Shown here one piece after another: positions 23,740 through 28,909 of a stretch of 28,909 nucleotides of DNA. The notes under the pieces were generated by a model. That model did not search any database. It was given only the letters and a program-made list of their open reading frames with translations, and had not been told where the DNA came from. The translations under genes and the position numbers were made by a program. The first letter of the stretch is position 1; every line of letters begins with the position of its first letter. Source of the DNA: a virus; IMG/VR virus record IMGVR_UViG_3300032235_000051, positions 1-28,909 of that record; one strand, written 5' to 3'.

Positions 23740-23747
23740 TATTTAGT
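23740..23747 (-). promoter_or_regulatory. ACTAAATA late-type promoter motif
   Basis: Minus-strand ACTAAATA lies between the terminator hairpin 23759-23793 and the connector gene ATG at 23686, as expected for restart of tail-operon transcription after the moron island. Confidence 0.4.
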
Positions 23748-23756
23748 TGGGCTCGT

Positions 23757-23793
23757 AAGAATAGGGTGATTTAACTAATAAACCACCCTATTC
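23757..23793 (-). terminator. Terminator-like hairpin after moron genes
   Basis: GAATAGGGTG (23793-23784 read on the minus strand) pairs with CACCCTATTC (23768-23759), a perfect 10-bp stem with a 15-nt loop, followed by a short TT run. It follows the lipoprotein gene by about 50 nt. The U tract is weak, so efficiency is uncertain. Confidence 0.6.
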
Positions 23794-23845
23794 CAATGAG
23801 TTAAGCGTTTAGACTTATTACAACTGCACCAATATTTACCAGTTT

Positions 23846-24052
23846 TTAGTGCGGAACTACCACCGTGACAGCACGTCCGTTAACTGTACCTGTATAAACT
23901 CTTACACCAGAACGTGCAGAGCTTGGTGCACCTGGCTTTTCTTTATCATAAGGGATAGCTGCAAGTGCAGGCCAGTTTCGCCCCTGTTGGTCTTTTACAG
24001 TTGTGCAGGCCGCAGTTACGAACAACAGGGGAATAAGAATTAGCTTACTCAT
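23846..24052 (-). CDS. Small lipoprotein, moron-like
   Basis: A 68-residue protein with a short signal peptide (MSKLILIPLLFVTAAC), basic start, hydrophobic core and a lipobox-like TAAC with Cys at 16. The mature part is about 53 residues and ends GVRVYTGTVNGRAVTVVVPH, a pair of beta strands. It lies between capsid and connector genes, where head genes are normally adjacent, and has its own promoter and terminator. Phage lipoproteins of this type act in superinfection exclusion or, rarely, as outer-membrane spanins. No further evidence favours one. It follows the 24058-24189 gene by 5 nt. Confidence 0.75.
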   Translation of the reverse strand: MSKLILIPLLFVTAACTTVKDQQGRNWPALAAIPYDKEKPGAPSSARSGVRVYTGTVNGRAVTVVVPH

Positions 24053-24057
24053 TTTCT

Positions 24058-24189
24058 TTAACCCTGATAGGATAGATAGGAACCAAAGTTAGAGTCAACA
24101 TAATTGACTACCTTTGCACTAGCACCAAGCGTTTCTTTGGGAAAGCCTATTACAGCCAATGCAATTACAATTAATACTAACTTGTCCAT
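24058..24189 (-). CDS. Tiny exported or membrane peptide, moron-like
   Basis: A 43-residue protein. DK is followed by a hydrophobic helix (LVLIVIALAVIGF) and a possible signal cleavage site after TLGA, then a short Tyr and Ser-rich mature part (VVNYVDSNFGSYLSYQG). AAGGAC lies 8 nt before the ATG. It is the first gene after a near-consensus sigma70 promoter (24219-24247) and is followed 5 nt later by the lipoprotein gene, so the two probably act together. I recognise no family. Confidence 0.6.
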   Translation of the reverse strand: MDKLVLIVIALAVIGFPKETLGASAKVVNYVDSNFGSYLSYQG

Positions 24190-24218: not shown

Positions 24219-24247
24219 ATTATAACGTTTAAGGTATTTAAGGTCAA
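24219..24247 (-). promoter_or_regulatory. Sigma70-type promoter of the moron genes
   Basis: On the minus strand TTGACC (24247-24242), 17 bases, TATAAT (24224-24219). This is one base from full consensus, with optimal spacing. The start should fall near 24212, about 20 nt before the ATG at 24189. The host RNA polymerase should use it without phage factors. Confidence 0.82.
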
Positions 24248-24263
24248 TGATTTTGATAGCCAA

Positions 24264-24301
24264 TAAGAAACCCTAGACTCTAGCAAATAAGCCTAGGGTT
24301 T
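24264..24301 (-). terminator. Terminator-like hairpin ending the short RNA
   Basis: AAACCCTAG (24301-24293 on the minus strand) pairs with CTAGGGTTT (24276-24268), 9 bp with a 16-nt loop, followed by CTTATT. The A/U base of the stem supplies part of the U run. It lies between two sigma70 promoters that face the same way. Confidence 0.6.
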
Positions 24302-24334
24302 CCGTTCTATGATAGTATGTAACCTTGTACTGGC
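24266..24334 (-). ncRNA. Candidate short phage RNA (about 65-70 nt)
   Basis: A fully consensus promoter (24341-24369) and a hairpin 33 nt further on frame a transcript of about 65-70 nt. The only frame in it codes 14 residues without a ribosome binding site, so a non-coding role is more likely. It has no tRNA shape. It could be a regulatory RNA, or an attenuator for the moron genes. No homology is known to me. Confidence 0.45.
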
Positions 24335-24340
24335 CATTAC

Positions 24341-24369
24341 ATTATACTAAACTATTCTAGGCCTGTCAA
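24341..24369 (-). promoter_or_regulatory. Perfect consensus sigma70 promoter
   Basis: TTGACA (24369-24364), 17 bases, TATAAT (24346-24341) on the minus strand: exact consensus in both boxes and spacing. It begins 7 nt after the capsid terminator stem. The expected start is near 24334. Confidence 0.87.
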
Positions 24370-24371
24370 CC

Positions 24372-24399
24372 AAAAGGAAAGGGCCCTAAAGCCCTTTCC
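24372..24399 (-). terminator. Rho-independent terminator after the major capsid gene
   Basis: GGAAAGGGC (24399-24391, minus strand) pairs with GCCCTTTCC (24384-24376), 9 bp with a 6-nt loop, followed by TTTTGG. It lies 24 nt after the capsid stop and isolates the moron island from head transcription. Confidence 0.88.
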
Positions 24400-24422
24400 C
24401 CCACATTCAAGGATATTTGAAC

Positions 24423-28148: not shown

Positions 28149-28175
28149 TGACCCGTGTTATTTCAGTGTTATAAT
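28148..28175 (+). promoter_or_regulatory. Possible antisense sigma70 promoter under the terL stop
   Basis: Plus-strand TTGACC (28148-28153), 16 bases, TATAAT (28170-28175). It would transcribe towards the terL coding region in antisense. The -10 box includes the terL stop codon, so chance is a real option. Confidence 0.3.
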
Positions 28176-28909
28176 GCAGTTGCTACTTGGTGACCCCAAC
28201 GACGAGGCTGTTCAATGTGAGCAGTGTCGCGTCTGATTGGGAACATAAAGTCCACCATGTAACCCAAAGCATCCATCATATGATCATAACCTGAATCTTT
28301 GTCTGGTTGGCTAGTGCCTTCCTTGTAACTGTGTCTTTCAAGGCCCTCAATTGTGTGTTTGCACTTAGACGATAAAAACAAATGTCTAGTGCCTTGGCCG
28401 TCACATAGTCTACTATTGACAGCATTAATTCTATCCCTTACTGGGGTATGGCTTCTTGGTGCCTTGACAACAAAGCCAGCATTTTGTAATATAGTAATGT
28501 CTGTTTTGCCGCCAGCACTGGTCTTGCGTTGATGTCCTGCAGGATCAGGATAGATCCATATCTTGCTTTTTGGATATCTAGATTTAAGTTCATCTACCAA
28601 TTCATGTGTGTCAGACCCGTATATTCTGATCTCATCTATAACAACCAAATTATCGCCATGACGCACTGCAATAACAGCAGACATAGGATCAACGTTGAAG
28701 TCACAGCCAACATAAATGACATCTGTTTGATAGTCTTTGACATCAATGACATTTTCTCTTCTATCAAAGCTGTAGTAGATTCTGCCTGCAAAAGTTTCAA
28801 AGCTAGCAAGGAATTCTTGTCTAAAGGTTCTTTCATCTAGGTCCCTTCGTGCTTGTTCTATTTCTTCTAAAGGAACCCTACCACCATCTAATGTAGTAAA
28901 CTGCCACGA
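28169..28909 (-). CDS. terL: Terminase large subunit, C-terminal nuclease half (enters at window end)
   Basis: A 246-residue open frame from the window edge. It begins SWQFTTLDGGRVPLEEIEQA and carries DLDERTFRQEFLASFETF, the usual link to the nuclease. RNase H-like acidic positions are seen in YVGCDFNVDPMSAVIA, in IYPDPAGHQRKTSAGG and in SGYDHMMDALGYMVDF (the DHxxDAxxY end motif). With the 165 residues at the other end, the protein would be about 412-415 residues, normal for this family. It ends 60 nt before the portal gene. Confidence 0.93.
   Translation of the reverse strand, partial: SWQFTTLDGGRVPLEEIEQARRDLDERTFRQEFLASFETFAGRIYYSFDRRENVIDVKDYQTDVIYVGCDFNVDPMSAVIAVRHGDNLVVIDEIRIYGSDTHELVDELKSRYPKSKIWIYPDPAGHQRKTSAGGKTDITILQNAGFVVKAPRSHTPVRDRINAVNSRLCDGQGTRHLFLSSKCKHTIEGLERHSYKEGTSQPDKDSGYDHMMDALGYMVDFMFPIRRDTAHIEQPRRWGHQVATAL

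What the first reader, a model, noticed from the sequence alone, without database searches (positions are those of the whole stretch)
24264..24369. Consensus sigma70 promoter driving a 65-70-nt RNA between head genes
TTGACA-17-TATAAT is an exact consensus and is followed by only about 65 nt before a terminator-like hairpin, then by a second promoter. The short transcript has no plausible coding frame. This is the typical layout of a small regulatory RNA gene. It would be made at once by the host polymerase, unlike the late-type units.
Basis: partly seen in the sequence, partly recalled or inferred. Interest (0 to 1): 0.72.

Follow-up and report, generated by a model that had tools for sequence, protein, structure and literature searches.

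The report
Empty promoter-terminator cassette in phage moron slot
A perfect bacterial promoter followed at once by a stop signal sits between two capsid-region genes of a freshwater-type phage; it probably makes a 70-letter RNA, but comparison with relatives suggests an empty gene cassette in a busy insertion site rather than a dedicated regulatory RNA.

Summary
The anatomy is real and lies on the minus strand: capsid gene, terminator T1, consensus sigma70 promoter P1 (TTGACA-17-TATAAT), about 31 unstructured nt, hairpin T2, second promoter P2, 43-aa ORF, 68-aa lipoprotein, T3, late-type CTAAATA box, connector gene. P1 is the only 12/12 match in the window (0.03 expected). A 69-74-nt terminated RNA is the natural prediction. 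The small-regulatory-RNA reading is not supported: no homologue, no Rfam family, no structure beyond the terminator, no pairing to own gene starts better than shuffles, no gene opposite. In 89 distinct capsid-connector gaps of related phages this place is a moron slot: sigma70 promoters (at least 10/12) occur in 28 of 32 gaps of 300 bp or more but 2 of 57 shorter ones. T-P-short-T units without an ORF recur in 6 of 89 gaps with unrelated sequences and either promoter type, as expected of empty or turned-over cassettes. Best reading: a stacked terminator-promoter module without cargo, transcribed early by host polymerase; its RNA is probably a by-product, possibly adding some read-through to the morons. 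A functional non-coding moron is not excluded (about 0.2). In passing: twin NAGGA-loop mini-hairpins precede the next operon in 79 of 89 gaps.

The parts
24373..24402 (-). T1: hairpin with T-rich tail just after the capsid gene (GGAAAGGGC..GCCCTTTCC-TTTTGG)
   Evidence: a first terminator lies within 110 nt after the capsid stop in 85 of 89 gaps
24341..24369 (-). P1: consensus sigma70 promoter TTGACA-17-TATAAT
24261..24334 (-). predicted 69-74-nt non-coding RNA (start inferred, not mapped)
   Evidence: no ORF of 20 or more codons
24266..24303 (-). T2: 15-pair hairpin with T-rich tail; tail TTATTGGCTATC resembles the capsid-terminator tails of relatives (e.g. L104 TTTTGGCTATC)
24219..24247 (-). 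P2: sigma70 promoter TTGACC-17-TATAAT with a TAAATA (late-type) box in its spacer
24058..24189 (-). 43-aa ORF with hydrophobic N-terminus (moron 1)
   Evidence: no PHROG
23846..24052 (-). 68-aa ORF with lipobox-like VTAAC, probable lipoprotein (moron 2)
   Evidence: no relatives by sequence, PHROG or Pfam
23758..23794 (-). T3: hairpin after the morons
23740..23746 (-). CTAAATA late-type box before the connector operon
   Evidence: TAAATA in the last 95 nt of 86 of 89 gaps

Best explanation
The stretch is one of two stacked terminator-promoter modules in a moron slot between the capsid and connector genes. T1 ends capsid transcription. P1, a host sigma70 promoter, fires early; polymerase runs about 70 nt and stops at T2; P2 then starts the mRNA of the two small morons. 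The P1 module carries no gene: it is an empty or decayed moron cassette (or a duplicated terminator-promoter module), and its terminated RNA is mainly a by-product, at most adding some read-through to the morons. Shown: the sequence elements, their order, and the linkage of sigma70 promoters to cargo in relatives. Inferred: transcription, termination, timing, and absence of function.
For: Slot grammar in relatives: of 89 distinct gaps, promoters at 10/12 or better in 28 of 32 gaps of 300 bp or more and 2 of 57 shorter ones; at 11/12 or better 21 of 32 and 0 of 57. P1 sits in the usual place right after the capsid terminator; T2-to-P2 spacing (+18 nt) lies inside the range seen for first terminator to promoter. 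Stacked modules with genes occur in L108, L332 and L336. ORF-less terminator-promoter-short-terminator units in 6 of 89 gaps: window and L151 (sigma70), L101 (weak sigma70-like, 9/12), L084, L099, L161 (late box); a further one before the TerS gene in L401 (10/12). The window RNA shows no sequence relation to the fetched loci. The 5' 33 nt have no structure.
Against: P1 is a perfect consensus, which a decaying remnant should lose unless it is recent. No relative shows the cassette with its supposed lost gene, so loss is not shown. No relative is close enough for a conservation test: an RNA conserved only among close kin would be missed. L151, the other sigma70 case, has a 60-nt 5' domain with some structure (z -1.7), so some units could be real RNA genes.
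Confidence: 0.6

Rival explanations
1. A trans-acting small regulatory RNA gene (a non-coding moron): P1 makes a 70-nt RNA at once after infection which pairs with host mRNAs through its unstructured 5' part.
For: Consensus promoter, terminator hairpin, free 5' part, length in the usual sRNA range; a second ORF-less sigma70 unit in the same slot in L151.
Against: No homologue, no Rfam family, T tract interrupted (TTTCTTATTGG), no own target better than shuffles. ORF-less units also occur with late boxes. Host unknown, so host targets were not tested.
Confidence: 0.2
2. A leader or attenuator of the morons: P1 transcripts meet T2, and some condition lets polymerase read on into the 43-aa and lipoprotein genes.
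For: T2 lies between P1 and the morons; its tail is interrupted, so leakage is likely.
Against: P2 (11/12) already serves the morons; no alternative antiterminator fold seen (the stretch without the 3' arm has z +1.0); no leader peptide inside the predicted RNA.
Confidence: 0.13
3. Chance: P1 is a consensus look-alike that is not used.
For: Sigma70-like sites in bulk are no more frequent than in shuffles; ORF-less terminator units after promoters at 10/12 or better are only slightly above random positions (22 of 418 against 96 of 3000).
Against: Exact match expected 0.03 times per window, and in the very place where relatives carry the promoter.
Confidence: 0.07

Closest known systems
Morons of tailed phages (extra genes with their own promoter; Hendrix/Juhala 2000 as cited in PMC6814406, passages seen; flanking terminator recalled)
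   Same: Inserted between conserved virion genes, own sigma70 promoter, flanked by terminators, absent in many relatives.
   Different: This first module has no gene; the phage is not known to be temperate (no relative in one scan of genome contigs).
OOP RNA of lambda and sar RNA of P22 (short phage RNAs; PMC12197685, passages seen; sizes recalled)
   Same: Own promoter and a short RNA (terminator recalled).
   Different: OOP and sar are antisense to a gene (cII, ant); here no gene lies opposite.
ncRNAs found by transcriptomics in Salmonella prophages (PMC7067206, passages seen)
   Same: Non-coding transcripts in accessory regions, some about 74 nt (IsrJ).
   Different: Those are measured RNAs; here only DNA is known.

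Membership tests
Moron cassette | own host-type promoter | tested here: met
   P1 12/12, P2 11/12
Moron cassette | terminators on both sides | tested here: met
   T1, T2, T3; prediction only
Moron cassette | inserted between genes that are adjacent in relatives | tested here: met
   57 of 89 gaps are under 300 bp, 32 carry more
Moron cassette | carries a gene | tested here: not met
   P1 module has no ORF of 20 or more codons; the P2 module does carry two ORFs
Trans-acting sRNA gene | discrete transcript | not testable with these tools
   no RNA data
Trans-acting sRNA gene | conserved sequence or structure beyond the terminator | tested here: inconclusive
   no homologue but no close relative either; 5' part unstructured
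Trans-acting sRNA gene | pairing with target mRNAs | tested here: inconclusive
   42 own gene starts: no better than shuffles; host unknown
Trans-acting sRNA gene | Hfq-type uninterrupted U tail | tested here: not met
   tail UUUCUUAUUGG; criterion recalled
OOP/sar antisense RNA | overlaps a gene on the other strand | tested here: not met
   no + strand ORF of 50 or more aa across 24261-24334
Attenuator leader | two exclusive folds, or a leader peptide | tested here: not met
   no stable alternative fold; 14-codon ATG frame starts before the predicted 5' end

The most novel reading that the evidence does not exclude
The slot also accepts non-coding morons: independent host-promoter RNA genes (window 70 nt; L151 about 120 nt with a partly structured 5' domain) that a phage otherwise driven by T4-like late boxes makes from host polymerase alone, before or without its late program.
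Probability: 0.18. Interest if true: 0.6.

Novelty: new member of a known kind. Interest (0 to 1): 0.3.

Why it matters
It shows, over 89 gaps, a moron slot whose host-type promoters track cargo almost perfectly, and it gives a warning: a perfect promoter plus a terminator at 70 nt in such a slot need not be an sRNA gene. If the RNA does prove functional, the slot is a place to look for non-coding morons in a widespread aquatic phage group.

Tried and rejected
DNA search of annotated phages: no match. Lipoprotein search: none in viral contigs. Portal search: only two relatives, at 52-54% identity and without a slot. Prophage search in genome contigs: none. Hairpin pattern in viral contigs: three unrelated contexts. 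Terminator-plus-consensus-promoter pattern: 119 stretches, 80 listed; of the 83 loci that I checked (these 80 and the 3) none matched capsid or connector. L391 and L393 first looked like the same layout, but their '-35' lies inside the end of the TerS gene and the hairpin is that gene's terminator, so I dropped them. Antisense to an opposite gene: none. Replication-origin RNA: GC skew shows no turn at 24.3 kb. Rfam weak hits (sbrA, rnk leader and others) are far below gathering scores. A CsrB-like sponge: the RNA has one GGA, at the hairpin base, not in a loop (sequence). One search's list of ORF-less units was too loose and its output was cut; one search is the cleaned version. It gave 12 tandem terminator pairs in 11 slots; I kept 6 by eye and dropped 6 (L107, L183, L185, the second pair of L151, L338, L346: leader mini-hairpins, no promoter, or only a 9/12 chance site near the 3' end).

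Gaps were made distinct by exact sequence only, so near-identical contigs still count separately (55 exact duplicates and 18 incomplete gaps removed of 162 loci).

Full report
WHAT IS THERE. Everything lies on the minus strand. After the capsid gene (25301-24423; major head protein by PHROGs) come hairpin T1, promoter P1 (24369-24341), about 31 nt, hairpin T2 (24303-24266), promoter P2 (24247-24219), a 43-aa ORF, a 68-aa lipoprotein-like ORF, hairpin T3, a CTAAATA box (23746-23740) and a connector-like gene (23686-23234; 'connector' is inferred from its place, no PHROG match). P1 is the only exact TTGACA-(16 to 18)-TATAAT in the window on either strand, 0.03 expected. Weaker promoter-like and terminator-like sites as a class are not above chance, so the claim rests on the exact match, on P1 and P2 being the two best minus-strand sites, and on the family comparison below.

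THE RNA. From the inferred start (24334) to T2 it is 69-74 nt. Its fold is essentially the T2 hairpin (-23.7 to -24.0 kcal/mol, z -3.7 to -4.2); the 5' part is open (33 nt, z +0.85). An 80-nt version gains a closing stem between the two ends (z -4.65), but that needs read-through past the T tract. There is no ORF of 20 or more codons. Rfam: nothing at gathering score; the weak hits at E up to 5 are far below threshold. BLAST with short words against 2.6 Mb of fetched loci finds only itself (L081) and, among the best rows shown, chance matches of up to 16 nt. Pairing to 42 gene starts of the window is no better than shuffles.

THE FAMILY. Capsid and connector searches gave relatives, mostly uncultured IMG/VR contigs. 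Named relatives are Phage DSL-LC06 (49% capsid, 40% connector identity) and Pelagibacter phages HTVC111P, HTVC112P, HTVC026P and HTVC202P. From 162 loci I cut 89 distinct capsid-connector gaps (55 duplicates, 18 incomplete). 57 are shorter than 300 bp, 32 longer. Sigma70 promoters at 10/12 or better are in 28 of 32 long and 2 of 57 short gaps; at 11/12 or better 21 and 0; exact 6 and 0. The cargo is made of small ORFs, and in the slots that I read it mostly ends in a small lipoprotein-like or secreted protein. A terminator follows the capsid gene in 85 of 89 gaps, and TAAATA stands in the last 95 nt of 86 of 89. So the place is a moron slot, and P1 sits at its usual promoter position. T2 with its tail TTATTGGCTATC looks like the capsid terminators of relatives, such as TTTTGGCTATC in L104 (14 of 85 first terminators have TTGGCTAT or TTGGCTGT in the tail), and its spacing to P2 (+18) is ordinary. 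The window thus has two terminator-promoter modules in a row, the first without a gene.

EMPTY MODULES ELSEWHERE. Among the 89 gaps I count six with a terminator, a promoter, no ORF and a second terminator: window and L151 (sigma70), L101 (weak, 9/12), L084, L099 and L161 (late box) (chosen by eye from 12 pairs in 11 slots, six dropped as said under Tried and rejected). L084 has a 27-codon and L151 a 21-codon ATG frame near or across the second hairpin. L401 has another before TerS. I see no relation between their sequences by eye; BLAST was run for the window and L151 units only. Over all family sequences, 22 of 418 distinct promoters at 10/12 or better are followed by an ORF-less short terminator unit, against 96 of 3000 random positions, so the layout is not strongly enriched. 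The loss of genes between promoter and terminator, or duplication of terminator-promoter modules, explains this with no function for the RNA. What speaks against it is the intact consensus of P1 and the partly structured L151 unit (z -1.7).

VERDICT. Observation confirmed; a short terminated transcript is likely (my estimate about 0.75, inferred). A dedicated sRNA is possible (0.2) but nothing specific supports it. Whether P1 adds to moron expression depends on T2 leakage, which was not measured. No claim about the literature is made beyond the searches; four papers were seen as passages (PMC10611076, PMC12197685, PMC6814406, PMC7067206), the rest as listings.

Noticed in passing
window 23734-23718 and 23707-23695, minus; last 75 nt of the gaps: Twin mini-hairpins with an NAGGA loop (mostly AAGGA or TAGGA) stand before the connector gene: exactly two in 79 of 89 gaps, 84 distinct hairpin sequences, 159 in all against 12.9 in shuffles that keep AGGA. 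GGA in a hairpin loop over a ribosome site recalls CsrA/RsmA sites (recalled; listing), or a phage regulator. No binding test was possible.
   Followed up: partly
window, minus: 28146, 26105, 23745, 12288, 11070, 9524, 8044, 6798 and others: TAAATA boxes like T4 late promoters (consensus recalled): 13 on the minus strand, 1 on the plus strand, many before gene blocks. No transcription or replication gene was recognised among the window proteins scanned (not all ORFs were scanned), nor in the annotation of the 29.8-kb circular relative DSL-LC06. Who reads these boxes is open; dependence on a T4-like co-infecting phage is one speculation.
   Followed up: partly
window ends 1-513 and 28169-28909: The large terminase gene is split over the two ends of the record with a small frame break at the join, so the record is probably a nearly complete, circularly permuted genome of about 29 kb.
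   Followed up: partly
window 24247-24219; L107, L158, L163, L338: A TAAATA late-type box sits inside the sigma70 promoter (TTGACTAAATAC..TATAAT; in the window TTGACCTTAAATACC..TATAAT): a possible early-plus-late double promoter for the morons.
   Followed up: no
L111, L113, L115, L176, L336, also L108 and L332: The -35 hexamer TTGACA lies inside the terminator hairpin (in L108 and L332 for the second unit), giving a fused terminator-promoter module.
   Followed up: no
L151, 332-bp gap: ORF-less sigma70 unit of about 120 nt with a 60-nt branched 5' domain (z -1.7) and a strong terminator; the best candidate for a non-coding moron in this family.
   Followed up: partly
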